A stretch of DNA of 64,000 nucleotides from Citricoccus sp. SGAir0253 (GTDB lineage Bacteria; Actinomycetota; Actinomycetes; Actinomycetales; Micrococcaceae): assembly GCF_005877055.1 (NCBI RefSeq), contig NZ_CP039424.1:806001-870000 (forward strand), given 5' to 3'. The notes beneath the pieces are model-generated. The model did not search any database, was not told the DNA's origin, and saw only the letters and a program-made list of their open reading frames with translations. The first letter of the stretch is position 1, and the number at the start of each line of letters is the position of its first letter. The position numbers were made by a program, and so were the translations under genes. Below, piece by piece: positions 8,234 to 62,908 of the stretch.

Positions 8234-8239
8234 TAGGGT
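8234..8239 (+). promoter_or_regulatory. leaderless -10 of trxA
   Basis: TAGGGT, then 6 bases, then ATG. This spacing puts the transcription start at or next to the A of the start codon. Confidence 0.7.
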
Positions 8240-8245
8240 GGGGGC

Positions 8246-8614
8246 ATGGCAACCACCGACATCACCGAGGCCGACTTCGAGAAGACCCTCACCGACCACG
8301 AGATCGTCCTCGTGGACTTCTGGGCCGACTGGTGCGGCCCCTGCAAGCGCTTCGCCCCCGTCTACGAGGAGGTCTCCGGCCGCCACGAGGACGTCGTGTT
8401 CGCCAAGGTGGACACCGAGGCCGAGCGGGGACTGGCCGCGGCCGCCAACATCACCTCCATCCCCACGCTGATGGCCTTCCGGGACAAGGTCCTCGTCTAC
8501 GCCCAGCCCGGGGCGGTCAACGCCACGCAGCTCGAGGAGCTCGTCACCGCGGTCAAGGGCCTGGACATGGACGATGTCCGCGAGCAGGTGGCCAAGGCCC
8601 GGAACGAGGGCTGA
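8246..8614 (+). CDS. trxA: thioredoxin
   Basis: A 122-residue thioredoxin with the redox-active motif WCGPC (Trp29, Cys30, Cys33) and the cis-proline in SIPTL (Pro73). It reduces protein disulfides in the cytoplasm, recharged by thioredoxin reductase encoded elsewhere. The C-terminus is slightly longer than usual, with a charged tail. There is no ribosome binding site at the normal place. Instead a TAGGGT -10 ends 6 bases before the ATG, so the mRNA is probably leaderless. It is monocistronic and convergent with the glycosylase gene. Confidence 0.95.
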   Translation: MATTDITEADFEKTLTDHEIVLVDFWADWCGPCKRFAPVYEEVSGRHEDVVFAKVDTEAERGLAAAANITSIPTLMAFRDKVLVYAQPGAVNATQLEELVTAVKGLDMDDVREQVAKARNEG

Positions 8615-8662
8615 ACCGCCCCGCCGGTGGCCGCCCCGGCCTCCGCCACCCCGCCGGCCGGC

Positions 8663-9664
8663 TCAGCGGCCGCGGTGGTCCGCCGGGGCCAGCCGAGGGC
8701 CGAAGCGGCTGAACCGGTAGCCGGCCAGGCCGATCAGCCGCACCACCCGTTGCCGGTGGCCCGCGTACGGGGCCAGCAGGCGCAGCATGCCGGCGTCGTC
8801 CGTGCGGCGGCCCGTGAGCGCCTCGCCCACGTGGTGGGCCAGGTGGAAGTCACCCACGGCCACCGTGTCCGGTGCCCCGTGGGTGCGCTGGACCGTCTCC
8901 GCCGCCGTCCACGGGCCCAGGCCCGGCACCGAGCACAACCGGGCGACCACGGAGCCCGGGTCGTCCTCGGCGCCCAGGGGCTGCGCGCCCAGCCGGTCCA
9001 GGGCGCGGGCCCGCTCGGCCACCCGCAGCATGGCCCGCGACTGCGCCGGCTGCACCCAGCCGGCGTGCCACTCCCAGCTCGGCACCCGGCGTACCGCCTC
9101 CGCGGTCGGGGCCAGGCGCATCCCCTCGGGGGCGGGGGCGGGCGGGAGGTCGCCGTACCGGCGCACGAGCCATCGCCAGCCGGACCGGGCCTGGTCGTGC
9201 GTGACCTTCTGCTCGAGCACCACCATGAGCAGCTGGTCGACCACGCGGCCCGTCGCCGGCAGGCGCAGCCCCGGATGGGCCCGGCGGGCCCGCACCACGG
9301 CGGCGGGCAGTCCCGGAACGCCCGCGGCGAGCAGGGCATCGAGGCCGGACCAGTCGTCGTCGAGCCCCAGCAGGGCCGGCGCCGCGGCCACCGCGGCCCG
9401 CGCCCCCGGCCCCCAGGCCAGCACGGGGACGCGCCCCGGTTCGTGGGGGGAGGCGGCGGGCCGCACGAGCAGCGTCACGGGGTCCCCGGTGCCCGGCTGG
9501 CGGAAGACGAGCCACACCCCCTCCGGCCGGGACTGCACGGTCGGGTCCGCGTGCCCGCGCTGGAGCACCCCCAGGGTCAGGCGCACGTCCACGGGCGCCC
9601 CGGGCTCCAGGACCGCCGCGGCATCCGGGGCCGGCAGCGGGCCGATCGGGGGCAGGGAGGGCAT
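8663..9664 (-). CDS. AlkA-like DNA-3-methyladenine glycosylase (HhH-GPD superfamily)
   Basis: A 333-residue base-excision repair glycosylase. The helix-hairpin-helix reads VPGLGPWTA (residues 246-254), and the catalytic Asp of the GPD motif is Asp272 in VGDFHL. The N-terminal ~130 residues form an AlkA-like beta domain. The substrate is probably alkylated purines such as 3-methyladenine; specificity cannot be read from sequence. The ATG at 9664 has a weak -10-like GAGAAT 6 bases upstream, so it may be another leaderless gene. It is monocistronic, divergent from cbs and convergent with trxA. Confidence 0.85.
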   Translation of the reverse strand: MPSLPPIGPLPAPDAAAVLEPGAPVDVRLTLGVLQRGHADPTVQSRPEGVWLVFRQPGTGDPVTLLVRPAASPHEPGRVPVLAWGPGARAAVAAAPALLGLDDDWSGLDALLAAGVPGLPAAVVRARRAHPGLRLPATGRVVDQLLMVVLEQKVTHDQARSGWRWLVRRYGDLPPAPAPEGMRLAPTAEAVRRVPSWEWHAGWVQPAQSRAMLRVAERARALDRLGAQPLGAEDDPGSVVARLCSVPGLGPWTAAETVQRTHGAPDTVAVGDFHLAHHVGEALTGRRTDDAGMLRLLAPYAGHRQRVVRLIGLAGYRFSRFGPRLAPADHRGR

Positions 9665-9803
9665 GTCACCATTCTCCCGCACCGGCTGGTGCACCGCGCC
9701 GCCGCACCGCCCCTCGCCGCCGCGCCTCGCCGCCGGCGCGCCGCCGCCAGTCCCCGCCGGTCACGCGGATTCACGCTATTGTCCCCGCGCGCGGACCCGG
9801 CGG

Positions 9804-9809
9804 TAGCGT
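9804..9809 (+). promoter_or_regulatory. leaderless -10 of cbs
   Basis: TAGCGT, then 7 bases, then ATG 9817. A possible -35, TTGTCC (9779-9784), lies 19 bases upstream of it. Confidence 0.7.
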
Positions 9810-9816
9810 GGGGCGC

Positions 9817-11331
9817 ATGACAGAGGAGATGCACTACGCCGAGAACGTCCTCGGGCTGATCGGCAACACCCCGCTGGTGAGGCTCAACAAGGTCACGGAG
9901 GGCATCAGGGCCACCGTCCTGGTCAAGCCCGAGTACCTCAATCCCGGCGGGTCGGTGAAGGACCGCATCGCCCTGAAGATGATCGAGAACGCCGAGGCCG
10001 AGGGCCGGCTGGCCCCGGGCGGCACCGTGGTGGAGCCCACCTCCGGCAACACCGGCGTGGGCCTGGCCCTCGTGGCCCAGCTCAAGGGCTACCACTCCGT
10101 GTTCGTCACCCCGGACAAGGTCGGCCAGGAGAAGCGGGACGTGCTGCGCGCCTACGGCGCCGAGGTGGTCGTGACGAAGACCTCCGTGGCCCCGGAGTCG
10201 GAGGAGTCCTACTACGGCGTGGCCAACCGCCTCGAGCGGGACATCCCGGGCGCCTACCAGCCCAACCAGTTCTTCAACCCCTCGGCCCCGCAGTCGCACT
10301 ACGAGACGACCGGCCCCGAGATCTGGCGGGACACCGCCGGGCGCATCACCCACTTCGTCGTCGGCGCCGGCACCGGCGGCACCGTCACGGGCACCGGCCG
10401 GTACCTCAAGGAGGTCTCGGCCGACCGCGCGTCGGGCCCCGTGCGGGTCGTGGTCGCGGACCCGGACGGCTCCATCTACTCCGGCGGCACCGGCCGGCCG
10501 TACTTCGTCGAGGGCGTGGGTGAGGACATGATGCCCGGCAACTACGACCCCTCCGTCCCGGACGAGGTCATCGCCGTGGACGACGCCGCCTCCTTCGAGA
10601 TGACGCGCCGGCTGGCCGCCGAGGAGGGGCTGCTCGTGGGCGGGTCCTCCGGGATGGCCGTCGTCGCCGGGCTGCGCGCGGCACGGGACCTCGGCGAGGA
10701 CGACGTCATGGTCATCCTGCTGCCGGACTCCGGCCGCGGGTACCTCGGCAAGATCTTCAACGCGTCCTGGATGGACGAGATGGGCTTCGAGACCACGGCG
10801 GCCGAGTCCGTGCTGCCCGCCGGCGGCGTGCCCGGGGGAGTGCCCGACGGCGGCGCCCCGGCCACCGCGGGGGCGGCACCGGGCGCGCCGGCCGGCTCGG
10901 CCGCGGCCGGCTGGGAGGGCACCGTGGGCGACCTGCTCGCGGCGAAGTCCTCGCTGCTGCCCGCCTCCCTGCCGGCCGTGGTGACCGCGCCCAAGGACGC
11001 CACGATCGCCGAGGCGATCTCCACCATGAACCGCTACGGCGTGGACGCGCTGCCCGTGGTCGGCGCCCCGCGCGACGACCTGCGGGTGGGGGAGGTGCTC
11101 GGCTCGGTGACCGTGGCCGGGCTCAGCGACCTGCTCGCCTCCGGCGCGGCCCGCCCCGCGGACACCGTCCTGGAGCACGCCGGCCCGGCCCTGCCGCGCC
11201 TCAACGTGCACTCCACCCTGGCCCGGGCCCGCGAGGCCCTGCGCTCCGCCCCCGCCGTGATGGCCACCCGCAACGGCGTGGTGGCCGGCATCATCACCCT
11301 GCACGACCTCCTGGCCCGCGTGGCCCGGTGA
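9817..11331 (+). CDS. cbs: cystathionine beta-synthase
   Basis: A 504-residue PLP enzyme that condenses serine and homocysteine to cystathionine, the first step of reverse transsulfuration. The PLP lysine is Lys48 in NPGGSVKDR; the phosphate loop is GAGTGGTVTG, and TSGNTG binds the substrate carboxylate. An Ala/Pro/Gly linker leads to a C-terminal pair of CBS domains (residues ~370-504), which separates it from cysteine synthase CysK. The N-terminal heme domain of animal CBS is absent. The leaderless -10 supports the ATG at 9817 over an in-frame start 9 bases upstream. metB follows after 16 bases, so the pair forms a cysteine/methionine interconversion operon. Confidence 0.93.
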   Translation: MTEEMHYAENVLGLIGNTPLVRLNKVTEGIRATVLVKPEYLNPGGSVKDRIALKMIENAEAEGRLAPGGTVVEPTSGNTGVGLALVAQLKGYHSVFVTPDKVGQEKRDVLRAYGAEVVVTKTSVAPESEESYYGVANRLERDIPGAYQPNQFFNPSAPQSHYETTGPEIWRDTAGRITHFVVGAGTGGTVTGTGRYLKEVSADRASGPVRVVVADPDGSIYSGGTGRPYFVEGVGEDMMPGNYDPSVPDEVIAVDDAASFEMTRRLAAEEGLLVGGSSGMAVVAGLRAARDLGEDDVMVILLPDSGRGYLGKIFNASWMDEMGFETTAAESVLPAGGVPGGVPDGGAPATAGAAPGAPAGSAAAGWEGTVGDLLAAKSSLLPASLPAVVTAPKDATIAEAISTMNRYGVDALPVVGAPRDDLRVGEVLGSVTVAGLSDLLASGAARPADTVLEHAGPALPRLNVHSTLARAREALRSAPAVMATRNGVVAGIITLHDLLARVAR

Positions 11332-11347
11332 CCCGAAAGGACCCGTC

Positions 11348-12592
11348 ATGACCGAACGCGCCGCTGAGCCCGCCGAGACCGTCCAGACCGACCGTCCCGC
11401 CGGGGAGGGCGACTACGACCACACCCTCCACCCCACCGCCGGGTTCAACACCCGCGCCATCCACGCCGGCCAGGCCTTCGAGCCGGTCACCGGCGCCGTG
11501 GTGCCGCCCGTGCACCTGTCCACCACGTACGCCCCGGAGCGGGTCGGCAGCCTCCGCCACGGCTACGACTACGGCCGCGGCACCAACCCCACGCGCGACT
11601 CCCTGCAGGAGCAGCTCGCCGCGCTCGAGGGCGGCGTGGAGGGCACCGCGCGCGCCTTCACCTTCGGCTCCGGCCTCGCGGCGGAGAACGCCCTGATCCA
11701 CGCGGTGGCCGCCCCCGGCGCGCACATCGTGATGGGCAACGACGTCTACGGCGGCACCTACCGCCTCATCAACCGGGTCCTCGGCCCGTGGGGCGTGGGC
11801 CACACGGTGGTCGACATGGGGGACGTGTCCGCCGTGGAGCAGGCCCTGGCCGCCTCCGGGGCCGGGATCCTGTGGCTGGAGACCCCCTCGAACCCGATGA
11901 TGAAGATCTCGGACATCGCCGCCCTGGCGGACGCCGCGCACGCCGCCGGCGCCCTGCTGGTGGTGGACAACACCTTCGCCACGCCCTACCTGCAGCTGCC
12001 CCTGGAACTGGGCGCCGACGTCGTGGTGCACTCCACGACCAAGTACATCGGCGGACACTCGGACGTGATCGGCGGGGCCGTGGTGGTCGAGGACCCGGAG
12101 CTGGCCGAGAAGGTGCAGTTCCAGCAGTTCGCCGCGGGTGCCGTCAACGGCCCGCTGGACGCCTACCTCACCACGCGGGGCCTGAAGACCCTCGGCGTGC
12201 GCATGGACCGGCACACCGCCAACGCCGGCACGATCGCCACGTGGCTGCAGGACCGTCCGGGCGTGGAGCGCGTGCTCTACCCGGGCCTGGCGGACCACCC
12301 GGGCCACGAGCTGGCCACGCGGCAGATGCGCGGCTACGGCGGCATGGTCTCGGTGCAGTTCACCGGCGGCGCGGCGGCCGCCAAGCAGGTGGCCGAGACC
12401 ACCCGGCTGTTCCAGCTGGCCGAGTCGCTCGGCGGCGTCGAGTCGCTCATGAACTACCCGGCCGAGATGACGCACGCCTCCGTGGCCGGCACCGAGCTCG
12501 CCGTGCCGGACAACCTCGTGCGCCTGTCCGTGGGCATCGAGGACGTGGCCGACCTGATCGACGACCTCGACCGGGCGATCAGCGCGCTCTGA
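11348..12592 (+). CDS. metB: cystathionine gamma-synthase/gamma-lyase (Cys/Met PLP family)
   Basis: A 414-residue member of the Cys/Met metabolism PLP family. The PLP lysine is Lys232 in HSTTKYIGGHSD; other landmarks are YGRGTNPT, ETPSNP and DNTFATPYLQ. The first ~30 residues are an unusual acidic Pro/Glu extension. Actinobacterial MetB proteins paired with cbs can act as gamma-synthase (methionine direction) or gamma-lyase (cysteine direction), and sequence alone does not decide. GAAAGGA precedes the ATG. Second gene of the cbs-metB operon, ending at a hairpin terminator. Confidence 0.9.
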   Translation: MTERAAEPAETVQTDRPAGEGDYDHTLHPTAGFNTRAIHAGQAFEPVTGAVVPPVHLSTTYAPERVGSLRHGYDYGRGTNPTRDSLQEQLAALEGGVEGTARAFTFGSGLAAENALIHAVAAPGAHIVMGNDVYGGTYRLINRVLGPWGVGHTVVDMGDVSAVEQALAASGAGILWLETPSNPMMKISDIAALADAAHAAGALLVVDNTFATPYLQLPLELGADVVVHSTTKYIGGHSDVIGGAVVVEDPELAEKVQFQQFAAGAVNGPLDAYLTTRGLKTLGVRMDRHTANAGTIATWLQDRPGVERVLYPGLADHPGHELATRQMRGYGGMVSVQFTGGAAAAKQVAETTRLFQLAESLGGVESLMNYPAEMTHASVAGTELAVPDNLVRLSVGIEDVADLIDDLDRAISAL

Positions 12593-12632
12593 GCGTCCCG
12601 GCCCGGGCCCCGTCCCGGCCCCGTGCGCCGGG

Positions 12633-12658
12633 TCCCGGGCGGCATCTGCCGCCCGGGA
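12633..12658. terminator. terminator hairpin between metB and the convergent membrane gene
   Basis: TCCCGGGCGGCA and TGCCGCCCGGGA form a perfect 12-bp inverted repeat separated by 2 bases. Confidence 0.55.
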
Positions 12659-12659
12659 T

Positions 12660-13337
12660 TCAGCGCAGCCGCCGGCGCACCGGCGGCAGCCACAGCAGCG
12701 CCGCGCCGGTGAGCAGCACCACGGCGATCGCGACCAGCAGCGGGTGCCCGCGCAGGATGAGCGGCACCCCGACGAGCACGGCGATGCCCGTCAGGAGCCC
12801 GGCCGCCCCGCGCCGGGAGCGCAGCAGCTGCACGGTGCCCGCGCCGGTGGCGAGCGCGAGGACCCCCGTCAGCCCGGCGAGCACGTACTGCCCGGTGCGG
12901 CCCGCGAGCGGGTCGCGCAGCAGGTAGCCGTCCGGGCCGAGCACGGGGCCCTCGGCGACCGGCTGGGACGTCCCCGCGAGGACGAAGGAGGCGGTGAGCA
13001 GCGCGAACAGCACCGTGACCAGCGCCCACCACCAGCGCGCGGTGCGCAGCAGCGCGGAGGGGCCGACGGCGGCCGCGCGGGACCCCCGGTCGGCGCCGGC
13101 ACCGGCCTCGGCGCCGCCCTGGGGACCGGTGCCGGGACCGGCGGCCCGGGCGTCGCGGTCGCGGCGCGCCGTGGACGACGCCGTGGACCGCGACCCGGAC
13201 GGCGCCGTGGACGGCGGGGTGGCTGCCGCGGCGTCCCGCGCGTCCTGCCGGCTCGCGTCGAGGAAGGCGCGCGTGGCCCGGCCGGCGGCGCGGGCGTAGC
13301 GGTGCTGGGGGGCCTCGTGGGGGTTCTGTTCGGGCAC
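12660..13337 (-). CDS. hypothetical membrane protein with disordered N-terminus
   Basis: A 225-residue protein of unknown function. The first ~95 residues are Ala/Arg/Gly/Asp-rich and low complexity. Three or four hydrophobic helices follow, with a short extracytoplasmic loop holding GPDGYLLRDPLAGR. The tail is basic (PPVRRRLR). The GTG start at 13337 is set by a TAGGCT -10 six bases upstream, so it is probably leaderless. It is monocistronic between the metB terminator and the deaD leader. No catalytic motif is visible. Confidence 0.65.
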   Translation of the reverse strand: MPEQNPHEAPQHRYARAAGRATRAFLDASRQDARDAAAATPPSTAPSGSRSTASSTARRDRDARAAGPGTGPQGGAEAGAGADRGSRAAAVGPSALLRTARWWWALVTVLFALLTASFVLAGTSQPVAEGPVLGPDGYLLRDPLAGRTGQYVLAGLTGVLALATGAGTVQLLRSRRGAAGLLTGIAVLVGVPLILRGHPLLVAIAVVLLTGAALLWLPPVRRRLR

Positions 13338-13343
13338 GGGTCG

Positions 13344-13349
13344 AGCCTA
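13344..13349 (-). promoter_or_regulatory. leaderless -10 of the membrane-protein gene at 12660-13337
   Basis: On the minus strand TAGGCT is followed by 6 bases and then GTG. Confidence 0.65.
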
Positions 13350-13376
13350 GCCGTCGGGGCGGTCCGGCCCATGCGC

Positions 13377-13382
13377 TAGACT
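13377..13382 (+). promoter_or_regulatory. -10 element of the deaD promoter
   Basis: TAGACT. It predicts a transcript start near 13389 and therefore an untranslated leader of about 300 bases before deaD. Confidence 0.5.
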
Positions 13383-13388
13383 GGTGAG

Positions 13389-13685
13389 CACCATTCCGGT
13401 CAGAACCCCTGTGCATGCCCGAGAGGGCATCGAGTTGTGTGGCCCCACCCGACAGAGTGTCGGGGCAGCGGGCGGCCGGTCCTTCACACCCCCAGCCGTT
13501 CCTCCGTCGAGGACGTGGCCCGCCCGTGCGGTGCCCACGATCGCGGAACCGGCCGGGCGGGGACCGCCAGGTGATATGGGACGGGCGTGACGTTGGACCA
13601 CGCCTCGGGGAGCGCCGGAGAGAATGCAGTCCGCTGCGCCGCGGCATCCAACCGGCCGCCGACCCGATCCCCAGAAGGAATCACC
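13389..13685 (+). promoter_or_regulatory. long structured 5' leader of the DEAD-box helicase gene
   Basis: About 297 bases with no convincing gene. It contains a hairpin TGCCC-GAGA-GGGCA (13414-13427) with a GNRA-type loop and a second hairpin CCCGACA-GAG-TGTCGGG (13447-13463). More GC-rich sequence and a ribosome binding site AGAAGGAA (13673-13680) follow. Long leaders on cold-shock DEAD-box helicase mRNAs control stability and translation in other bacteria. Here the function is inferred. Confidence 0.45.
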
Positions 13686-15515
13686 GTGTCCGAGAACACC
13701 ACCGTGCCCACCCCTGCCTTCGCCGACCTCGGCATCGACGCCCGCGTGCTCGCCGCCGTCGAGGACCTCGGCTACGAGACCCCCTCGCCGATCCAGGCCG
13801 AGACCATCCCGCTGCTGCTCGCCGGGCGCGACGTCGTCGGCCTGGCCCAGACCGGCACCGGCAAGACCGCGGCCTTCGCCGTGCCCGCCCTGTCCCGGCT
13901 CGCCGAGCTCGCGGACGTCAACGGCCCCGCGGACAGCCCCCAGGTCCTCGTGCTGGCCCCCACGCGCGAGCTGGCCCTGCAGGTCGCCGAGGCCTTCACC
14001 AGCTACGCCAAGCACCTCAAGGGCGTCACCGTGCTGCCCGTGTACGGCGGCGCGCCCTACGGCCCGCAGCTGTCCGGCCTGCGCCGCGGCGCCCAGGTCG
14101 TGGTCGGCACCCCCGGCCGCGTGATCGACCACCTCGAGAAGGGCTCCCTGGACCTGTCCGACCTGCAGTACATGGTCCTGGACGAGGCCGACGAGATGCT
14201 GCGCATGGGCTTCGCCGAGGAGGTCGACCGCATCCTGGCCGCCACGCCCTCCGGCAAGCAGACGGCGCTGTTCTCGGCCACCATGCCGCGCGCCATCCAG
14301 CGGATCTCCGGCAAGTACCTCAACGACCCGGTCGAGGTGACCGTGGCCGCCAAGAACACCACCGCCGGCAACATCCGCCAGCGCTTCCTGCAGGTGACCC
14401 ACCAGTGGAAGCTCGAGGCCATGACCCGCATCCTCGAGACCGAGGAGCACGACGGCGTCATCGCCTTCGTGCGCACCCGCAACGCCACCGAGGAGCTCAC
14501 CACCAAGCTCAACGCCCGCGGCTTCCGCGCCGCGGCGATCTCCGGCGACGTCGCGCAGAACCAGCGCGAGAAGACCGTGGAGAACCTGCGCGCCGGCCGC
14601 GTGGACATCCTCGTGGCCACGGACGTGGCCGCCCGCGGCCTGGACGTGGAGCGCATCAGCCACGTCATCAACTACGACATCCCGCACGACACGGAATCCT
14701 ACGTGCACCGCATCGGCCGCACCGGCCGCGCGGGCCGCTCCGGGGACGCCGTGCTGTTCATGACCCCGCGGGAGAAGTACCTGCTGCGCTCCATCGAGAA
14801 GGCCACGCGCCAGACCGTCGAGCAGATGCACATGCCCTCCGTGGCGGACGTGAACTCCTCCCGCCTGGGCAAGTTCAGCACCCAGATCACCGAGACCCTC
14901 TCCGAGGGCGACCTGGACGTGTTCCGCGAGCTCGTGGACTCCTACGTGGCCGAGCACGAGGTGGCCCCCGAGGACGTCGCCGCGGCGCTGGCCAAGATGG
15001 CCCAGGGCGGGCGCCCACTGCTCACCGAGGAGCCGGACCTGCCGCCGGTGCGCATGGCCCGTGGCGACCGCGACGACCGCGGCGAGCGGGACGGGCGCGG
15101 CTCGCGCGGCCCCCAGCGCGGCCCGGCCGAGGGCAACGCCACCTACCGGATCGCGCTGGGCCGCCAGGACCGCGTCCAGCCGGGCAACATCGTCGGCGCG
15201 CTGGCCAACGAGGCCGGGCTGCGCTCGAACCAGATCGGGCACATCGACATCCGCTCCAACCACTCCCTCGTGGAGCTGCCGGCGGACCTGACCGGCCAGC
15301 AGTGGGACGCCCTGGGCAACACCACCATCAACGGCCGTCCGATCGAGCTGCAGCTGGACACCGGCCGGCCCACGCGCGCCGAGCGCGAGGGCAAGCCGTT
15401 CCGCTCCGGCGGCGGCTCCAAGGGCGGTTTCAAGGGCGGCCACAAGGGCGGCGGCTTCAAGGGCGGTTTCAAGGGCAGGAAGTCCTTCGACCGCCCCTCC
15501 CGCGACCGGTACTGA
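13686..15515 (+). CDS. deaD: DeaD/CsdA-type ATP-dependent RNA helicase
   Basis: A 609-residue DEAD-box helicase that unwinds structured RNA, typically in ribosome assembly, mRNA turnover and cold adaptation. The Q motif ends at SPIQ, motif I is AQTGTGKT (residues 54-61), DEAD is at 166-169 and SAT at 197-199; HRIGRTGRAG is motif VI. After the helicase core comes a helical region, an Arg/Asp/Gly-rich linker and a DbpA-type RNA-binding domain. The C-terminus is a run of KGGFKGG/KGGH repeats that should bind RNA non-specifically. The GTG at 13686 is chosen for its AGAAGGAA ribosome binding site; open-frame codons upstream belong to the leader. Confidence 0.93.
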   Translation: MSENTTVPTPAFADLGIDARVLAAVEDLGYETPSPIQAETIPLLLAGRDVVGLAQTGTGKTAAFAVPALSRLAELADVNGPADSPQVLVLAPTRELALQVAEAFTSYAKHLKGVTVLPVYGGAPYGPQLSGLRRGAQVVVGTPGRVIDHLEKGSLDLSDLQYMVLDEADEMLRMGFAEEVDRILAATPSGKQTALFSATMPRAIQRISGKYLNDPVEVTVAAKNTTAGNIRQRFLQVTHQWKLEAMTRILETEEHDGVIAFVRTRNATEELTTKLNARGFRAAAISGDVAQNQREKTVENLRAGRVDILVATDVAARGLDVERISHVINYDIPHDTESYVHRIGRTGRAGRSGDAVLFMTPREKYLLRSIEKATRQTVEQMHMPSVADVNSSRLGKFSTQITETLSEGDLDVFRELVDSYVAEHEVAPEDVAAALAKMAQGGRPLLTEEPDLPPVRMARGDRDDRGERDGRGSRGPQRGPAEGNATYRIALGRQDRVQPGNIVGALANEAGLRSNQIGHIDIRSNHSLVELPADLTGQQWDALGNTTINGRPIELQLDTGRPTRAEREGKPFRSGGGSKGGFKGGHKGGGFKGGFKGRKSFDRPSRDRY

Positions 15516-15585
15516 CCGGCTCCTGACGTGGGGCTTTGCCTCGATTTCGCATCCGCGGGAATCGCTGGTAGAGTTTCACGTCGTT

Positions 15586-15657
15586 GCCCCGATAGCTCAG
15601 TGGTAGAGCGCCATCTTGGTAAGATGGAGGTCCCGGGATCGATTCCCGGTCGGGGCT
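15586..15657 (+). tRNA. tRNA-Thr (GGT)
   Basis: Acceptor GCCCCGA pairs with TCGGGGC. The anticodon stem CCATC/GATGG encloses TTGGTAA with anticodon GGT. The T-loop is GATTCGATTCC-like. CCA is not encoded. A -10-like TAGAGT lies at 15569-15574. Confidence 0.96.
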
Positions 15658-15662
15658 CTGGG

Positions 15663-15710
15663 ATGAGGGCCCGTGCGCAGTCAGTATCCGCGGCACGGGC
15701 GCTCTCATTT
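15663..15710 (+). terminator. hairpin between tRNA-Thr and tRNA-Met
   Basis: ATGAG plus GCCCGTGC (15669-15676) pair with GCACGGGC (15693-15700) plus CTCAT, followed by a TTT run. It probably ends tRNA-Thr transcription. Confidence 0.55.
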
Positions 15711-15713
15711 CAT

Positions 15714-15787
15714 GGCGGCGTAGCTCAGCTGGTTAGAGCGCACGACTCATAATCGTGAGGTCGGGGGATCGAGTCCCCCCGCCGCTA
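15714..15787 (+). tRNA. tRNA-Met (CAT), elongator type
   Basis: Acceptor GGCGGCG pairs with CGCCGCT (terminal G-U), and the anticodon stem CACGA/TCGTG encloses CTCATAA. The initiator features (three G-C pairs in the anticodon stem and a 1-72 mismatch) are absent. An isoleucine-2 tRNA with modified CAT cannot be fully excluded. CCA is not encoded. Confidence 0.93.
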
Positions 15788-15792
15788 CGGAC

Positions 15793-15829: not shown

Positions 15830-15858
15830 CTCGTCTCGCCGTACTTCGCGCCTGTGGG

Positions 15859-21423: not shown

Positions 21424-21477
21424 GTTGCACGGACGAAACATCCCGGACGACGAGGGGAAACACCGGCTTCCTACGGT
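21424..21477 (+). promoter_or_regulatory. nirD leaderless promoter with GAAAC boxes
   Basis: GTTGC, 6 bases, GAAAC (21435-21439); a second GAAAC at 21456-21460; 11 bases; then TACGGT (-10, 21472-21477), 6 bases, ATG. The boxes resemble those of nirB and nirC but are less perfect. Confidence 0.5.
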
Positions 21478-21976: not shown

Positions 21977-21982
21977 TACCGT
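21977..21982 (+). promoter_or_regulatory. leaderless -10 of the gene at 21989
   Basis: TACCGT, then 6 bases, then GTG. The promoter lies inside the frame tail of the sirB remnant. Confidence 0.6.
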
Positions 21983-26520: not shown

Positions 26521-26526
26521 AGTCTA
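26521..26526 (-). promoter_or_regulatory. leaderless -10 of asd, overlapping the upstream stop codon
   Basis: Minus-strand TAGACT, 7 bases, ATG. The TAG is also the stop codon of the small membrane gene at 26524-26739. Confidence 0.7.
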
Positions 26527-28110: not shown

Positions 28111-28116
28111 AGTCTA
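28111..28116 (-). promoter_or_regulatory. leaderless -10 of thyA
   Basis: Minus-strand TAGACT, 6 bases, GTG. Confidence 0.7.
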
Positions 28117-28537: not shown

Positions 28538-28543
28538 ACCCTA
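28538..28543 (-). promoter_or_regulatory. leaderless -10 of the small GNAT gene
   Basis: Minus-strand TAGGGT, 6 bases, ATG 28531. Confidence 0.7.
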
Positions 28544-29536: not shown

Positions 29537-29542
29537 ATCCTA
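29537..29542 (-). promoter_or_regulatory. leaderless -10 of mutT1
   Basis: Minus-strand TAGGAT, 7 bases, ATG 29529. Confidence 0.65.
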
Positions 29543-30582: not shown

Positions 30583-30588
30583 ACCCTA
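30583..30588 (-). promoter_or_regulatory. leaderless -10 of mshD overlapping the glnR stop
   Basis: Minus-strand TAGGGT, 6 bases, ATG. The first three bases are the TAG stop codon of glnR. Confidence 0.7.
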
Positions 30589-31290
30589 GCCCGCGGGGAC
30601 CTCCCCGGACTCGGTCTCGCGGGGCACGAACCGGTAACCGACGTTGCGCACGGTCCCGATCAGCTGCTCCTGGTCCGGGCCCAGCTTGGCGCGCAGGCGG
30701 CGCACGTGCACGTCCACGGTCCGGGTGCCGCCGAAGTAGTCGTAGCCCCACACCTCGTGCAGCAGCTGCTCGCGCGTGAAGACCCGTCCGGGGTGCTGCA
30801 CGAGGTGCTTGAGCAGCTCGAACTCCTTGAAGGTCAGGTTCAGCGGCACGCCGTGCACCTTCGCGGTGTAGCTCGCGGCGTCCACGCTCACCCCCGAGGC
30901 GCGGATGGGGGCCTCGCCCTCGGGCTCGGCCGGCCCTCCCGCCGCGGCGGCGGCATGGGCCACGGCCAGGCGCAGGCGGGCCGAGACCTCGGCGGGGCCG
31001 GCCGCCTCCAGCAGGAAGTCCGTGGCCCCCCACTCGGGCGACAGGGCGACGAGGCCGCCCTCGGTCAGGACCGGCAGCACGGGCAGGGCGGGGCTGGCCG
31101 CGCGGATCACCTGGCACAGCCCGCGCGCGGCGGAGAGCTCCCGCCGGGCGTCCACCAGCACGATCTCGGCCTCGGGATGGCGCAGCAGCGACTCGGCCCG
31201 CGGCGGGGCGGTGGAGACCCGGTGGTCCAGGAAGGCCAGCGCCTCCAGGACCGGCGCCGGGGTGCCCGTCAACAGCAGCAACCGGGCCAT
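30586..31290 (-). CDS. glnR: nitrogen regulator GlnR (OmpR family, atypical)
   Basis: A 234-residue response-regulator-like protein. The receiver domain (residues 1-120) keeps one Asp (Asp47 in [11 protein letters not shown]) but lacks the acidic pair and other phosphorylation residues, as in actinobacterial GlnR, which works as an unphosphorylated dimer. The C-terminal winged helix has [19 protein letters not shown] and [19 protein letters not shown], nearly the GlnR signature. GlnR controls ammonium, nitrite and nitrate genes, and candidate GlnR boxes sit before nirB, nirC and nirD in this window. The ATG has AGGAGG correctly spaced, and a good -10 (TATACT, 31327-31332) gives a short leader. 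Confidence 0.93.
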
Positions 31291-32161: not shown

Positions 32162-32512
32162 ATGACCGAGACGCCCATGGCCCGGGAGCTGTACACCGTG
32201 GACCTCGAGGAGGGCGGTGACGACCCGGTCGAGCGCGCCTTCCGCTTCGTGGGCGGCGTGCTCACCCAGGTGCTCGGCGGCTACGGCGCCGGCGTGGTGG
32301 GGGCCTCCGTGGTGGTGCGCCGGCGCGCCGACCACGAGGAGGTGCTGCGCATCGACGTCCCGGACGCCGTCTCGGGGGACCAGGTGCTGCAGGCCATGCA
32401 GCAGGACCTCGACACCTACCCGGCCGACGAGTTCGTGGCCGACTGGCTGGAGCGGGTCCGTCATGGTCGTCACGTTGCCGGCCACGACGCCGAGGGCACC
32501 CGGCTGGAGTAG
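32162..32512 (+). CDS. hypothetical acidic protein, 116 residues
   Basis: Not recognised. It is predicted as mixed alpha/beta: [32 protein letters not shown], then a [17 protein letters not shown] strand pair and a C-terminal helix ending in WLERVRHGR. No signal or membrane helix is evident. GGGAGGAG lies just before the ATG. It is co-directional with the membrane gene at 31376. Its TAG stop forms the start of the -10 for the 37-residue microprotein that follows. Confidence 0.6.
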
Positions 32513-32515
32513 GAT
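32510..32515 (+). promoter_or_regulatory. leaderless -10 of the microprotein gene, overlapping the upstream stop
   Basis: TAGGAT, 6 bases, ATG 32522. Its TAG is the stop codon of the preceding gene. Confidence 0.65.
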
Positions 32516-32521: not shown

Positions 32522-32635
32522 ATGTCGATTCTTGCACTTGAGGTCTTCTTCACCGTCCTGCTCGTCCTCGCGGGCCTGGCCATGGCGGCCTTCGCCGTCC
32601 TCGTCGTCTCCGGCCTGTACAAGGGCCAGCGCTGA
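32522..32635 (+). CDS. 37-residue single-helix membrane microprotein
   Basis: MSILALEVFF, then a continuous hydrophobic helix to about residue 32, and a short basic tail GLYKGQR. It has no charged residues in the helix except Glu7. The gene has its own leaderless promoter (TAGGAT six bases before the ATG) and a clean stop 9 bases before the nitrobindin start, so it looks real despite its size. The function is unknown; such proteins often tune a membrane partner. Confidence 0.6.
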   Translation: MSILALEVFFTVLLVLAGLAMAAFAVLVVSGLYKGQR

Positions 32636-35258: not shown

Positions 35259-35264
35259 AGGCTA
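35259..35264 (-). promoter_or_regulatory. leaderless -10 of the GNAT gene, overlapping the pfkA stop
   Basis: Minus-strand TAGCCT, 7 bases, ATG 35251. The TAG is the pfkA stop codon. Confidence 0.65.
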
Positions 35265-36290
35265 GCGCCCGAAGAGCACCTTCGCCTCGTCGTAGCGGTG
35301 CTGGGGGACCTCCTTGAGCCCGTCGAGGGCGTGGGCGAGGTCCACCCGGACGATCTCCGTGCCGTCCAGGGCCACCATCTGGCCGAACCGGCCCTCGGCC
35401 ACGAGGTCGATCGCCCCCATGCCGAAGCGCGTGGCCAGGACCCGGTCGTAGCCGGTGGGCGCGCCGCCGCGCTGGATGTGCCCGAGCACGGTGTTGCGGG
35501 TCTCGATGCCGGTGATCTCCTCGATCTGCTGCGTCACCCACTCGCCGATCCCGCCCAGCCGCGGCCGGCCGTGCTCGTCCGTGGACTCGGCCAGCGGGTC
35601 GTCGTGGCCCTCGGGGATGAACCCCTCGGCCACGACGACGAGCGGGGACCGGCCGCGCTCGTGCACCTGGCGCACCCACTCGCCGACCTGCTCCATGGAG
35701 GTGCGCTGCTCCGGGATGAGGATGGCGTGCGCGCCGGCCGACATCCCCGAGTGCAGGGCGATCCAGCCCACGTGGCGGCCCATCACCTCGGCGACCATGC
35801 ACCGGTGGTGGGACTCGCCCGTGGTGCGCAGCCGGTCCATGGCGTCGGTGGCGATCGAGACGGCGGTGTCGAAGCCGAAGGTGTAGTCGGTGGCCCGCAG
35901 GTCGTTGTCGATCGTCTTGGGCACCCCCACGAGCGGGACGCCGTCGTCGCACAGCCGCTTGGCCCCGGCCAGGGTGCCCTCGCCGCCGATCGCCACCACG
36001 GCGTCGATCCCGAGCCGGCGCATCTGGGCCAGGATGTTCTCCGGGCCGCCCTGCGGGTGGTGGTAGGGATGGGTGCGGGACGTGCCGAGGATCGTGCCGC
36101 CGGTGCGGGCCAGGCCGCGGACGCGCCGGCGGGGCAGGTCCTCCACGTCGCCCTCGATGAGGCCGCGCCAGCCGTCCCGGATCCCCACCAGCTCGTAGTC
36201 GTACGTCTTGATGCCGTGCAGGACCGCGGAGCGGATGACGGCGTTGAGTCCGGGGCAGTCCCCGCCGCTGGTCAGGAGGCCGACGCGCAT
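35262..36290 (-). CDS. pfkA: 6-phosphofructokinase
   Basis: A 342-residue PfkA-type phosphofructokinase, the committed step of glycolysis. The N-terminal GGDCPGLNAVIR binds the nucleotide phosphate, GGEG is at 102-105 and the catalytic Asp lies in PKTIDND (124-130); EVMGRHVGW and GHIQRGG bind fructose 6-phosphate. The GGEG loop, rather than GGDD, fits the ATP-using actinobacterial group, but donor choice is not certain. The ATG at 36290 has AAAGGA upstream, and a -10 TAGCCT lies at 36331-36336. An in-frame upstream extension is non-coding leader. Confidence 0.94.
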   Translation of the reverse strand: MRVGLLTSGGDCPGLNAVIRSAVLHGIKTYDYELVGIRDGWRGLIEGDVEDLPRRRVRGLARTGGTILGTSRTHPYHHPQGGPENILAQMRRLGIDAVVAIGGEGTLAGAKRLCDDGVPLVGVPKTIDNDLRATDYTFGFDTAVSIATDAMDRLRTTGESHHRCMVAEVMGRHVGWIALHSGMSAGAHAILIPEQRTSMEQVGEWVRQVHERGRSPLVVVAEGFIPEGHDDPLAESTDEHGRPRLGGIGEWVTQQIEEITGIETRNTVLGHIQRGGAPTGYDRVLATRFGMGAIDLVAEGRFGQMVALDGTEIVRVDLAHALDGLKEVPQHRYDEAKVLFGR

Positions 36291-43181: not shown

Positions 43182-43187
43182 ACCCTA
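43182..43187 (-). promoter_or_regulatory. leaderless -10 of the mod operon
   Basis: Minus-strand TAGGGT, 7 bases, GTG 43174. Confidence 0.7.
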
Positions 43188-44459: not shown

Positions 44460-44465
44460 AGCCTA
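44460..44465 (-). promoter_or_regulatory. leaderless -10 of aspC
   Basis: Minus-strand TAGGCT, 7 bases, ATG 44452. Confidence 0.7.
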
Positions 44466-53127: not shown

Positions 53128-56649
<3,522 letters not shown>

Positions 56650-56705
56650 CCCCTCCCCGCCCCCCAGACGTCATTCCACAGCGAACATCAGGAGTTCAAC
56701 GGACC

Positions 56706-60596
<3,891 letters not shown>

Positions 60597-60633
60597 CCGC
60601 TGACGGCTGACGGCTGAGCCCGTCGGCACCGCG

Positions 60634-60670
60634 CGAGGGGCGCCTTCCCACCCCGGGGAGGCGCCCCTCG
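60634..60670 (+). terminator. terminator after rpoC
   Basis: A 16-bp stem (CGAGGGGCGCCTTCCC with GGGGAGGCGCCCCTCG, one G-T wobble) and loop ACCCC, followed by TCGTCGTC. Tandem CGGCTGA repeats lie between the rpoC stop and this hairpin. Confidence 0.75.
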
Positions 60671-60756
60671 TCGTCGTCCGGGGGAGGGACGGCCGGCGGG
60701 GCAGGGCAGAGGGCAGGGCGGAAGACGGCGCCGCGGGCCGGGCCGGGCGCGGGGTC

Positions 60757-60762
60757 TAGGGT
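60757..60762 (+). promoter_or_regulatory. leaderless -10 of the aldo-keto reductase at 60770
   Basis: TAGGGT, 7 bases, ATG. Confidence 0.7.
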
Positions 60763-60769
60763 GGGAGGC

Positions 60770-61639
60770 ATGACCGACGAGCCCACCGCCCAGCGCCACG
60801 CCCTGCTCGAGGGCACCGGGGTGCATGACGTCCCCGTCCCCCTGATCGGCCTGGGCACCTGGCCGCTGTGGGGCGCGGAGTGCGAGGACGCCGTCGCCTC
60901 GGCCCTGGAGGCGGGGTACCGGCACCTGGACACCGCCGAGAACTACGCCAACGAGGACGCGGTGGGCCGGGCCGTGGCGGCCTCCGGGATCCCGCGCGAG
61001 GAGGTCTTCGTGACCTCGAAGTTCAACCGGCGCTGGCACGGGGGCACGGACCTGGTGCGCGCGGCCCTCGAGGCCGGCCTCGAGCGCGCGGGCCTGGAGC
61101 ACTTCGACCTGTACCTCGTGCACTGGCCCAACCCGGACCAGGGGCGCTACGTGCAGGCCTGCGCCTCGCTCGCGGAGCTCGTGGGCACCGGGCTCATCCG
61201 CTCCTGGGGCGTGTCCAACTTCACCCCGGAGCACCTGCAGGCGGTGCTCGACGCCGGGCTGGTCCCGGCCGTCAACCAGGTCTACTGCGAGCCGCGGGAC
61301 GCCCAGCGCCCCGTGCAGGACGCGAACCTGCTGGCCGGGGTGCTCACGGCCGCCTACACCCCGCTCGGCCGCGGCAGCGGGCTGCTCGCCGAGCCGGCCA
61401 TCGCCGGGATCGCCGACCGGACGGGGCACACGCCGGCCCAGGTGGTGCTGCGCTGGCACGTGCAGCAGGGGCGGATCGCGATCCCCAAGTCGGCCGACCC
61501 GCGGCGCCAGCGGGAGAACCTCGACGTGTTCTCCTTCGCGCTCACGCCCGAGGACATGGCGGCGATCGACGCCCTCGACGTCAGCGTGGCCGGCGGCGCC
61601 TCATCGCACCGGGCGGACCCGGAGCGGTTCGGGCACTAG
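60770..61639 (+). CDS. aldo-keto reductase (AKR5-like)
   Basis: A 289-residue aldo-keto reductase. The catalytic tetrad is visible as Asp and Tyr in LDTAENYANE, Lys in VTSKF and His in LVHWPNP. The C-terminal IPKSADPRRQRENLDVF binds NADPH phosphate. It resembles diketogluconate-reductase and morphine-dehydrogenase-like enzymes, but the physiological substrate is unknown. The TAGGGT -10 seven bases before the ATG marks a leaderless message. It is convergent with the FemX-like gene, sharing a CTAG at the stop codons. Confidence 0.9.
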   Translation: MTDEPTAQRHALLEGTGVHDVPVPLIGLGTWPLWGAECEDAVASALEAGYRHLDTAENYANEDAVGRAVAASGIPREEVFVTSKFNRRWHGGTDLVRAALEAGLERAGLEHFDLYLVHWPNPDQGRYVQACASLAELVGTGLIRSWGVSNFTPEHLQAVLDAGLVPAVNQVYCEPRDAQRPVQDANLLAGVLTAAYTPLGRGSGLLAEPAIAGIADRTGHTPAQVVLRWHVQQGRIAIPKSADPRRQRENLDVFSFALTPEDMAAIDALDVSVAGGASSHRADPERFGH

Positions 61640-62847
61640 CCCCGGCGGGACATGTAGAGGTCGAAGGCCGTGGCCAGCACGCGGTTGACCCGGTAGTCCC
61701 ACTCGCCGTGGGTCCGGACCACGTCCGCGCCCATGGTCGTCTTGAACCGCGTCAGCCCGGCCAACTCGTACTCGGGGTCCAGGGACGGGCTCATGCCGCC
61801 GAGGTCGTACCACGTGCAGCCGGCGGCCAGCGAGTCCTCGATCTGGCGCAGCTGCAATGCCCGCGGGGCGTAGCGCTTGCGTTCCTCGGAGGAGGACGCG
61901 CCGTAGACGTACCAGCCCATGGAGCCCTGCCGGACGTAGATCGCCGCGGCGAGCAGCTGCTCGCCCAGGTGCGCCAGGTAGAGGGTGCACCGGGTGCCGG
62001 GGGAGGCGTTCAGCGCGGCGAACATGCGCTCGAAGTAGGCCTGCGGGCGGCCGGTGAACCCGTCCCGGCGGGCGGTCTCCTCGTAGAGCGCCTGCCACGC
62101 CGGCAGGTCCGCCGCCGTGCCCTCGGTGACGGTCAGCTCCGAGCGGGTGGACTTGCGGGTCTGCCGGCGGGAGGTGGAGTCCATGCGGGACAGGGCGGCC
62201 TCCACGGCCGGGTCGAGGGCGTCCTTGCCGGTGCGCTCGGTGCCGTACAGCTCCGGCTGCAGGGGGATCCGGGCCTGGAACTGGGGCTGGCCGGCCTCGA
62301 AGGCGGCGGACTCGGCGGGCGCCCTCCACCCCATCGCCAGCAGCCGCCGGCGCAGGTCCTCGGCCTCCGGGTCCGTCTCGACCGGCTCCAGGTCCGTCAC
62401 GCTGCGGTGGCCGCCCGCCGCGAGTGCCTTGCGCACCACGGCACCGTCCCAGCGGCGCTCCACGCCGGGCAGGCCCACGCGGACGAGGAACGCGCCGCGG
62501 GAGCGCAGGTACTCCACGAGCGGGGGCAGCACGGCCTCCACGGGGACCGCCGAGCGGTCGAACACCGGACCCTCGGCCACGTAGGCCAGGGAGCGGTTCC
62601 GCAGCCCCGGCACGGGCACGGGCAGGCGGCGGAACAGCACGAGCGCGGCGGCGCGCAGGGTCCCGCCGTCGAACAGGCCCACCGACTCGCCGCGCCAGTC
62701 GACCTTGACGCGCGGCCACTCGGGGTTCTGCAGGAAGGACGCCAGCGGGTGCTCGGCCAGGAACCGGCCGTGCTCCTCGGTGGTGATGCTGCGGACGGTC
62801 AGGGCGCGGGGGGTCTGGACACGGGGGGTCTGGTCGATCTCGGGCAC
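61636..62847 (-). CDS. FemABX-like peptidyltransferase (peptidoglycan bridge formation)
   Basis: A 403-residue protein with two GNAT-like halves, the FemX/FemA architecture that adds amino acids to the lysine side chain of lipid II from aminoacyl-tRNA. Landmarks are FLQNPEWPRVKVDW, a basic DSTSRRQTRKSTR segment, YLAHLGEQLLAAAIYVRQGSMGWYVYGASSSEERKRYAPRALQ and GGMSPSLDPEYELAGLTRFKTTMG. The GTG at 62847 is set by TATGGT seven bases upstream. It is divergent from an ATP-grasp ligase of the D-aspartate ligase type. Which amino acid it adds is not readable from sequence. Confidence 0.85.
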   Translation of the reverse strand: MPEIDQTPRVQTPRALTVRSITTEEHGRFLAEHPLASFLQNPEWPRVKVDWRGESVGLFDGGTLRAAALVLFRRLPVPVPGLRNRSLAYVAEGPVFDRSAVPVEAVLPPLVEYLRSRGAFLVRVGLPGVERRWDGAVVRKALAAGGHRSVTDLEPVETDPEAEDLRRRLLAMGWRAPAESAAFEAGQPQFQARIPLQPELYGTERTGKDALDPAVEAALSRMDSTSRRQTRKSTRSELTVTEGTAADLPAWQALYEETARRDGFTGRPQAYFERMFAALNASPGTRCTLYLAHLGEQLLAAAIYVRQGSMGWYVYGASSSEERKRYAPRALQLRQIEDSLAAGCTWYDLGGMSPSLDPEYELAGLTRFKTTMGADVVRTHGEWDYRVNRVLATAFDLYMSRRG

Positions 62848-62854
62848 GCCCCTC

Positions 62855-62860
62855 ACCATA
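62855..62860 (-). promoter_or_regulatory. leaderless -10 of the FemX-like gene
   Basis: Minus-strand TATGGT, 7 bases, GTG 62847. Confidence 0.65.
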
Positions 62861-62902
62861 GCGTCCGGCCCGGCACGGGCCGGGTGCGCCCCGCCCCGCC
62901 GG

Positions 62903-62908
62903 TAGCAT
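62903..62908 (+). promoter_or_regulatory. leaderless -10 of the ATP-grasp ligase gene
   Basis: TAGCAT, 7 bases, ATG 62916. It lies 42 bases from the oppositely directed -10 of the FemX-like gene. Confidence 0.65.

What the first reader, a model, noticed from the sequence alone, without database searches (positions are those of the whole stretch)
8234..62908. Leaderless promoter pattern in 17 genes: TANNNT, 6-7 bases, start codon
Seventeen starts have TANNNT ending exactly 6 or 7 bases before ATG or GTG. They are trxA, cbs, the genes starting at 13337 and 21989, nirD, asd, thyA, GNAT 28531, mutT1, mshD, the gene at 32522, GNAT 35251, molR, aspC, AKR 60770, the FemX-like gene and the ATP-grasp gene. 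Five more have weaker hexamers at the same spacing (9664, 31376, 38362, 38488, 49042). This spacing puts +1 at the first base of the start codon. Leaderless mRNAs are known in actinobacteria; here the regularity also fixes start codons and marks operon boundaries.
Basis: partly seen in the sequence, partly recalled or inferred. Interest (0 to 1): 0.72.

Follow-up and report, generated by a model that had tools for sequence, protein, structure and literature searches.

The report
Leaderless gene promoters in a Micrococcaceae bacterium
In this high-GC actinobacterium about one sampled gene in ten has a promoter box placed so that the messenger RNA should begin exactly at the start codon, a known habit of actinobacteria; [quoted passage not shown]

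Summary
All 17 claimed TANNNT boxes are there at gap 6 or 7. In a 1.264-Mb sample of the 3.56-Mb genome, TANNNT stands at gap 6 in 63 and gap 7 in 39 of 963 genes, against about 1.4 at other gaps; starts were called without the motif. The peak recurs in Micrococcaceae and in most other actinobacterial genomes sampled, and is 0 of 70 genes in eight Burkholderiales loci. asd keeps the box in 71 of 72 Micrococcaceae loci, while the genes just upstream of asd and mshD lack it. Best reading: leaderless transcription from SigA-type -10 boxes, known for the phylum (PMC3160421, PMC3898074), so a new member of a known kind; no RNA data exist here. Less expected: before asd, mshD, 32522 and 35251 the TAG of the box is the stop codon of the preceding gene. 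Six such overlaps occur in the own sample; in 11 of 20 gene families with a TA-type stop at 9-10 nt most members show it; asd does so with several different upstream genes. Neutral capture of lost stops by the box explains it adequately.

The parts
8234..8239 (+). -10 box TAGGGT, gap 6, of trxA (ATG 8246)
   Evidence: thioredoxin PF00085; 2 of 2 loci
9804..9809 (+). -10 box TAGCGT, gap 7, of cbs (ATG 9817)
   Evidence: PF00291 + CBS domain; coding-only start was 9808; 1 of 1 locus
13344..13349 (-). -10 box TAGGCT, gap 6, of gene at 13337 (GTG)
   Evidence: no Pfam or NCBIfam match; 2 of 2 loci
21472..21477 (+). -10 box TACGGT, gap 6, of nirD-like Rieske gene (ATG 21484)
   Evidence: PF13806; 2 of 2 loci
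21977..21982 (+). -10 box TACCGT, gap 6, of 76-aa gene (GTG 21989)
   Evidence: box found in 38 of 44 loci
26521..26526 (-). -10 box TAGACT, gap 7, of asd (ATG 26513); [quoted passage not shown]
   Evidence: PF02774/PF01118; 71 of 72 Micrococcaceae loci keep the box
28111..28116 (-). -10 box TAGACT, gap 6, of thyA (GTG 28104)
   Evidence: PF00303; box found in 58 of 70 loci
28538..28543 (-). -10 box TAGGGT, gap 6, of GNAT-like gene (ATG 28531)
   Evidence: PF14542; 11 of 20 loci
29537..29542 (-). -10 box TAGGAT, gap 7, of mutT1-like NUDIX/His-phosphatase gene (ATG 29529)
   Evidence: PF00293 + PF00300; only 10 of 65 loci
30583..30588 (-). -10 box TAGGGT, gap 6, of mshD (ATG 30576); its TAG (30586-30588) is the stop codon of the GlnR-like gene 30586-31290
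   Evidence: TIGR03448, PF21695 for the upstream gene; 51 of 59 loci keep the box
32510..32515 (+). -10 box TAGGAT, gap 6, of 37-aa gene (ATG 32522); its TAG (32510-32512) is the stop codon of gene 32162-32512
   Evidence: 34 of 35 loci keep the box
35259..35264 (-). -10 box TAGCCT, gap 7, of GNAT gene (ATG 35251); its TAG (35262-35264) is the stop codon of the PFK gene 35262-36290
   Evidence: box in only 1 of 6 loci
43182..43187 (-). -10 box TAGGGT, gap 7, of molR-like gene (GTG 43174)
   Evidence: HTH + TOBE domains; no usable relative
44460..44465 (-). -10 box TAGGCT, gap 7, of aspC-like aminotransferase (ATG 44452)
   Evidence: PF00155; coding-only start was 44380; 0 of 3 loci
60757..60762 (+). 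-10 box TAGGGT, gap 7, of aldo/keto reductase (ATG 60770)
   Evidence: PF00248; 0 of 4 loci
62855..62860 (-). -10 box TATGGT, gap 7, of FemX-like gene (GTG 62847)
   Evidence: PF02388; coding-only start was 62859; no usable relative
   Evidence: name not confirmed: no Pfam match, NCBIfam far below cut-off; gene runs off the window

Best explanation
The hexamers are -10 boxes of housekeeping (SigA-type) promoters whose transcription start is the first base of the start codon. The mRNAs are therefore leaderless and must be translated without a Shine-Dalgarno site, presumably by direct binding of the ribosome to the 5' AUG/GUG. The unit seen is TA[GC]NNT, usually GG, a further 4-5 bases usually ending in C, then ATG/GTG; no -35 hexamer is apparent. 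Shown: the motif, its spacing, its recurrence over the sampled genome, its conservation in orthologues of several genes and its near-absence from genes that overlap the previous gene. Inferred: the start of transcription, the sigma factor and the mode of translation. [quoted passage not shown] The likeliest origin is that a gene which lost its own stop ran on until the downstream gene's -10 box stopped it.
For: Positional peak: 63 (gap 6) and 39 (gap 7) of 963 own-genome genes against a mean of 1.4 over gaps 3-5 and 9-29, with starts called from codon usage and start-codon identity alone. The same peak appears in Micrococcaceae loci (Arthrobacter group 209 of 858, Nesterenkonia 31 of 146) and in 0 of 70 Burkholderiales genes. 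In stretches of 11 other unnamed actinobacterial genomes gaps 6+7 hold 5.0-15.7% of genes in ten and 2 of 97 in one. Orthologues: asd 71 of 72 Micrococcaceae loci, mshD 51 of 59, 37-aa gene 34 of 35, thyA 58 of 70, 21989 gene 38 of 44; by the same procedure the genes just upstream of asd and mshD have 0 of 41 and 1 of 55. In asd the gap, the NNN and the start position vary while TA...T and the distance are kept. GG follows the box more than the start codon: 81/81% right after the box at gap 6, 69/62% at gap 7. -1 is C in 54 of 71 hits v 343 of 589 others. Box in 53 of 276 genes with a divergent neighbour, 2 of 173 overlapping the previous gene. Stop overlap: in the own sample 6 of 6 TA-type stops 9-10 nt before a start have the T of the box, v 6 of 25 at spacings 5-8 and 11-40; own, G114 and G119 pooled 7 of 9 v 7 of 35. 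In different lineages the asd box is the stop codon of different upstream genes.
Against: No RNA 5' ends or proteomics. Gene starts come from my own simple caller, not checked against an annotation. Shine-Dalgarno tetramers are rare in hits (3 of 71 v 295 of 589), but writing the hexamer into other genes' upstream regions lowers their rate to 9% mechanically, so this is not independent evidence. Several window genes are not conserved as leaderless: aspC 0 of 3, AKR 0 of 4, 35251 gene 1 of 6, mutT1 10 of 65 loci; molR and FemX had no usable relative. Additional upstream promoters giving leadered mRNAs are not excluded. For the stop overlap: the T is not over-represented in the 11 other genomes as first sampled (3 of 8 v 5 of 19), and same-genus G114 has no case (4 pairs at 9-10 nt, none with a TA stop).
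Confidence: 0.92

Rival explanations
1. Chance or composition: in a GC-rich genome TANNNT near starts is a by-product of stop codons and AT-richer intergenic DNA.
For: [quoted passage not shown] A Markov shuffle of the window gives 7 matches where 19 are seen.
Against: Composition cannot give a two-base-wide peak: own-genome counts at gaps 3-12 are 0, 0, 1, 63, 39, 4, 1, 1, 1, 3. asd orthologues keep the box although its letters, spacing and position change.
Confidence: 0.01
2. The boxes are promoters, but most transcripts from these genes are leadered, from other upstream promoters, and the leaderless start is minor.
For: TANNNT also occurs further upstream (259 sites in the stretches 25-300 nt before 660 starts). 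In M. smegmatis 14% of leaderless genes also have leadered transcripts (PMC6448022, passage seen).
Against: Hit genes have few Shine-Dalgarno tetramers (3 of 71), so a leadered message would be poorly served, although the lack is largely mechanical. The box is kept in orthologues of asd, mshD, thyA and others.
Confidence: 0.06
3. The signal is translational: TANNNTGG acts on the ribosome and not on RNA polymerase, for example as an unusual ribosome-binding site.
For: The spacing is measured from the start codon, and GG lies 5-7 nt before it.
Against: GG moves with the box between gap 6 and gap 7. A translational signal should also serve genes inside operons, but only 2 of 173 genes overlapping the previous gene carry it. 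TANNNT is the -10 box found upstream of mapped starts in mycobacteria, Corynebacterium and Streptomyces (passages of PMC3898074, PMC3890552, PMC8079986).
Confidence: 0.01
4. For the stop/-10 overlaps only: selection favours fusing stop codon and promoter, e.g. to insulate or couple neighbours, rather than neutral capture.
For: It recurs with different neighbours: the asd box ends a 73-83-aa gene in Citricoccus/Micrococcus, other genes in L032/L034, L046 and Kocuria L056/L081; the thyA box ends at least four kinds of upstream gene (judged by length and end sequence). 11 of 20 families with a TA stop at 9-10 nt mostly have the box.
Against: Reading a frame into own-genome leaderless promoters without a near upstream gene ends exactly at the box in 20-22% of 204 trials per entry distance, so no selection is needed. 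The overlap is a minority state: 9 of 71 asd loci, 11 of 58 thyA loci, 2 of 51 mshD loci.
Confidence: 0.15

Closest known systems
TA-led leaderless genes of Actinobacteria (Zheng 2011, PMC3160421; passages seen)
   Same: TANNNT about 12 bp upstream of the translation start, in nearly all actinobacterial genomes, taken as leaderless genes; middle three bases little conserved.
   Different: Here gaps are resolved to 6 and 7 bases in one Micrococcaceae genome; the share is 10.6% of sampled genes by strict TANNNT where that paper predicts more than 20% with its own model.
Leaderless transcriptome of M. tuberculosis (Cortes 2013, PMC3898074; passages seen)
   Same: TANNNT centred 7-12 bp upstream of mapped starts, no conserved -35, purine start most often next to a pyrimidine; about a quarter of genes with a primary start leaderless.
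   Different: Mapped by RNA sequencing; here sequence only.
Leaderless promoters of S. lividans (PMC8079986) and C. glutamicum (PMC3890552); passages seen
   Same: TAnnnT; box-to-start distance 6.3 nt on average in S. lividans, where in leaderless genes A (94.5%) and last T (97.4%) are far more constant than the first T (63.8%), which fits the [ACG]ANNNT class here. ATG and GTG starts.
   Different: The S. lividans paper reports a TTGACn -35 for a subset; none is apparent here.
Stop codons overlapping the Shine-Dalgarno site of the next gene (PMC2784483; passages seen)
   Same: A stop codon of one gene doubles as an initiation signal of the next at a short spacing, with stop choice skewed.
   Different: There the second signal is a ribosome-binding site (TGAGG, TAGGAGG); here it is a promoter -10 box (TAGNNT). 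Both kinds occur at 9 nt in Arthrobacter loci (TAGGAG v TAGGCT).

Membership tests
Actinobacterial TANNNT-led leaderless genes | TANNNT at a fixed distance of about 12 bp before the start codon, as a sharp peak | tested here: met
   63+39 of 963 genes at gaps 6 and 7, about 1.4 per other gap; all 17 window sites
Actinobacterial TANNNT-led leaderless genes | Start codon ATG or GTG, not TTG | tested here: met
   54 ATG, 17 GTG, 0 TTG in 71 hits; but only 7 TTG in all 660 genes, so weak
Actinobacterial TANNNT-led leaderless genes | No Shine-Dalgarno site | tested here: inconclusive
   3 of 71 v 295 of 589, but the box itself occupies the site: 9% expected after planting it
Actinobacterial TANNNT-led leaderless genes | First genes of transcription units | tested here: met
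   53 of 276 with divergent neighbour, 2 of 173 overlapping the previous gene; units inferred from gene layout only
Actinobacterial TANNNT-led leaderless genes | Kept in orthologues within the group, absent outside | tested here: met
   asd 71 of 72 Micrococcaceae, 0 of 8 Burkholderiales; not met for aspC, AKR, 35251, mostly not for mutT1
Actinobacterial TANNNT-led leaderless genes | Mapped transcription start at the start codon | not testable with these tools
   no RNA data at hand; of 5 papers listed for Arthrobacter, transcription start site and leaderless none maps an Arthrobacter transcriptome, judged by titles and abstract starts
Stop codon doubling as -10 box (proposed variant) | Upstream stop codon coincides exactly with TAG/TAA of the box more often than with neighbouring positions | tested here: met
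   own, G114 and G119 pooled: 7 hits at offset 0, at most 3 at any other offset, spacings up to 60 nt
Stop codon doubling as -10 box (proposed variant) | Both functions active | not testable with these tools
   stop role follows from the reading frame; promoter role needs 5'-end mapping

The most novel reading that the evidence does not exclude
In high-GC actinobacteria the -10 box of a leaderless gene is a recurrent backstop for the gene before it. Because most boxes begin with TAG (71 of 102 own-genome hits), an upstream gene that loses its stop is caught there, leaving one TAGNNT that ends one protein and starts the next transcript 9-10 nt before its start codon. One and the same promoter has done this to several different upstream genes (asd and thyA). 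Promoter sequence thereby shapes stop-codon choice and gene spacing, and separate transcription units can sit only 9-10 nt apart, where annotation would call an operon.
Probability: 0.6. Interest if true: 0.5.

Novelty: new member of a known kind. Interest (0 to 1): 0.37.

Why it matters
For this genome the rule suggests start codons and transcript starts for about a tenth of genes without any RNA data, and it predicts which tight same-strand pairs are not simple operons. The stop-codon/-10 overlap, if confirmed, adds promoter sequence to the known pressures (Shine-Dalgarno overlap, 4-base ATGA overlap) on stop-codon choice and gene spacing, and gives a neutral route by which a promoter becomes part of a coding sequence.

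Tried and rejected
In-frame insulation: at gap 6 a TAG box is in frame with the start codon and could block N-terminal extension; but G at the third place is no commoner at gap 6 (60%) than at gap 7 (72%), so it is a promoter preference.

Second-codon bias: conserved ATGACT in many asd orthologues suggested a downstream signal; in the own genome AC at codon 2 is 16 of 71 hits v 122 of 589 others, so no.

Loss of Shine-Dalgarno sites as independent evidence: rejected as mostly mechanical.

Window as a special region: 13 of 64 v 89 of 899 genes elsewhere, Fisher p = 0.018; some 20-kb stretches elsewhere reach 5 of 14, and the finding was written because the window is rich, so I attach no weight.

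-35 element: no TTG triplet at a preferred distance (3 of 71 hits over 15 offsets); only a few simple patterns were tried.

Selection for stop/-10 fusion: not needed given the neutral capture rate.

Rows dropped: genes cut at the start of a stretch or with under 60-70 upstream bases were left out of the counts; matches covering under half the query were dropped (e.g. mshD 62 to 59, aspC 6 to 3, akr 9 to 4, pfk 11 to 8), and molR and femX had no usable match. The Burkholderiales control has only 70 called genes because my caller is weak at 57% GC.

Papers: passages read by 'find' in PMC3160421, PMC2784483, PMC3898074, PMC6448022, PMC10653884, PMC3890552, PMC8079986; all others only as search listings. 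That I know no paper describing a stop codon doubling as a -10 box rests on searches of the open-licence PMC library (two returned no paper, being narrow) and on memory, nothing wider.
Full report
What was checked. The window is G000:C1:806001-870000 of a 3.56-Mb genome. The best-matching named relatives of its asd protein are Citricoccus sp. CH26A and a Micrococcus MAG, 89% identical, so it is a Micrococcaceae actinobacterium of about 73-74% GC. Every one of the 17 claimed sites is present: TANNNT ends 6 bases (8 sites) or 7 bases (9 sites) before ATG or GTG. On both strands the window has 9 and 10 such matches at gaps 6 and 7, and 1.5 on average at the 39 other gaps from 0 to 40.

Is it more than chance, genome-wide? 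I wrote a gene caller that chooses starts from codon usage and start-codon identity only, so the motif cannot bias it. In 60 stretches plus the window (1.264 Mb, 963 usable genes) TANNNT occurs at gap 6 in 63 genes and gap 7 in 39; at gaps 3, 4, 5, 8, 9, 10 it occurs 0, 0, 1, 4, 1, 1 times, and 1.4 times on average over gaps 3-5 and 9-29. Allowing any start whose coding score is within 6 units of the best raises the counts to 79 and 63 against a background of 4.2.

Anatomy. In the 71 hits of the 660-gene sample the box is TA, then mostly G (46 of 71) or C. It is followed by GG: 81% and 81% at gap 6, 69% and 62% at gap 7, so the pair stays next to the box. C stands at -1 in 54 of 71 hits against 343 of 589 other genes. 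Starts are 54 ATG and 17 GTG. No -35 triplet stands out. Shine-Dalgarno tetramers are present in 3 of 71 hits and 295 of 589 others, but writing the hexamer into the other genes' upstream regions already lowers their rate to 9%, so this is weak support only.

Placement. The box precedes 53 of 276 genes with a divergent neighbour, 2 of 173 genes that overlap the previous one and 1 of 55 spaced 0-8 nt. This is what a promoter needs and what a ribosome signal would not show.

Relatives. Loci around asd in Micrococcaceae show the same peak: Citricoccus 13 of 48 genes, Micrococcus 19 of 66, Arthrobacter group 209 of 858, Nesterenkonia 31 of 146, Tersicoccus 6 of 31, Sinomonas 10 of 58, Rothia 7 of 45, Zafaria 3 of 17, Zhihengliuella 2 of 12, UBA4005 2 of 8, Kocuria 4 of 65, Auritidibacter 1 of 20; Burkholderiales 0 of 70. 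These loci repeat the same gene neighbourhood and are not independent. Stretches of 11 other unnamed actinobacterial genomes give 5.0-15.7% in ten of them and 2 of 97 in one, G011. By orthologue, asd has TANNNT-6/7-start in 71 of 72 Micrococcaceae loci, the exception being Auritidibacter, and in 0 of 8 Burkholderiales. There the letters of the box (TAGACT, TAAACT, TACACT, TAAAAT and others), the gap and even the position of the start codon differ between genera while the unit is kept. By the same procedure mshD has it in 51 of 59 loci, the 37-aa gene in 34 of 35, thyA in 58 of 70, the 21989 gene in 38 of 44; the genes just upstream of asd and of mshD have it in 0 of 41 and 1 of 55. Against this, mutT1 (10 of 65), aspC (0 of 3), AKR (0 of 4) and the 35251 gene (1 of 6) are mostly not leaderless by this test in the loci at hand.

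What it is. The best explanation is leaderless transcription from -10 boxes of the main sigma factor. This is established for actinobacteria: TANNNT about 12 bp before the translation start was taken to mark leaderless genes in nearly all actinobacterial genomes (PMC3160421), and RNA sequencing found about a quarter of genes with a primary start leaderless in M. tuberculosis (PMC3898074), 33% of mRNAs in C. glutamicum (PMC3890552) and 17% in S. lividans with a mean box-to-start distance of 6.3 nt (PMC8079986); I read passages of these. So the core finding is a new member of a known kind.

The part that goes further. [quoted passage not shown] In the full own-genome sample there are six such cases, four in the window plus L187:12676 (a PLD-domain protein) and L194:7925. 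All six TA-type stops at spacing 9-10 carry the T of the box, against 6 of 25 at spacings 5-8 and 11-40 (p = 0.0013); own, G114 and G119 pooled 7 of 9 against 7 of 35 (p = 0.002). In those three genomes the upstream stop falls exactly on the box in 7 leaderless genes and on any other single offset in at most 3. In the asd-region loci 30 of 48 TA-type stops at 9-10 nt have the T, against 16 of 91 elsewhere, but orthologues repeat. Grouped, 20 gene families have a TA-type stop at that spacing and in 11 most members have the box; one of the other nine, with six members, reads TAGGAG, a stop/Shine-Dalgarno overlap of the kind described in PMC2784483. Results against: the eleven other genomes as sampled show no excess of T (3 of 8 v 5 of 19), and G114 has no case.

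How it probably arises. The promoter looks older than the overlap. The asd box is kept in 71 of 72 loci but is also a stop codon in 9 of them, and there it ends different upstream genes: a 73-83-aa gene in L022, L023, L025 and L026 (as in the window), a 228-235-aa gene in L032 and L034, a 167-aa gene in L046 and a 130-aa gene in Kocuria L056 and L081 (told apart by length and end sequence, not by a family search). The thyA box is a stop codon in 11 of 58 loci, again with at least four kinds of upstream gene; mshD in 2 of 51, the 37-aa gene in 3 of 34. If one reads each frame into own-genome leaderless promoters that have no gene close upstream, the first stop met is the box itself in 20-22% of 204 trials per entry distance (52-61% run on into the next gene), against 10 of 1281 trials at the same place before other genes. 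In DNA this rich in GC the -10 box is a likely stop for a gene that has lost its own. This is inference from sequence; whether both functions are active needs 5'-end mapping.

Verdict. Observation confirmed; interpretation supported; ordinary for the phylum; the stop/-10 overlap is a modest, testable extension.

Noticed in passing
window 32522-32635 (+): A 37-aa hydrophobic peptide gene, matched by tblastn in 35 of 80 asd-region loci and preceded by the box in 34 of them, without Pfam or NCBIfam match; probably missed by many annotations.
   Followed up: partly
window 62847 (-)/62916 (+); L005:17928/17993; L102:13613/13650; L120:4167/4229: Back-to-back divergent leaderless promoters with start codons only 36-68 bp apart.
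   Followed up: no
G000, G114 and asd-region loci: The 6 v 7 base preference differs between close relatives: own genome 63:39, same-genus G114 20:2, Arthrobacter-group loci 174:35. Unexplained.
   Followed up: no
L177-L181 (G011): One same-phylum genome shows hardly any leaderless peak (2 of 97 genes), perhaps a lineage that lost the habit.
   Followed up: no
L054, L063, L075, L078, L083, L089 between 8.6 and 8.9 kb: TAG stop at 9 nt reads TAGGAG: a stop/Shine-Dalgarno overlap at the same spacing as the stop/-10 overlaps.
   Followed up: partly
L025 near the 37-aa gene: Upstream gene ends with TAA 41 nt before the start and a CTGGAG-TAGGAT follows, while L022, L023, L024 and the window have one copy that is both stop and box.
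   Followed up: no
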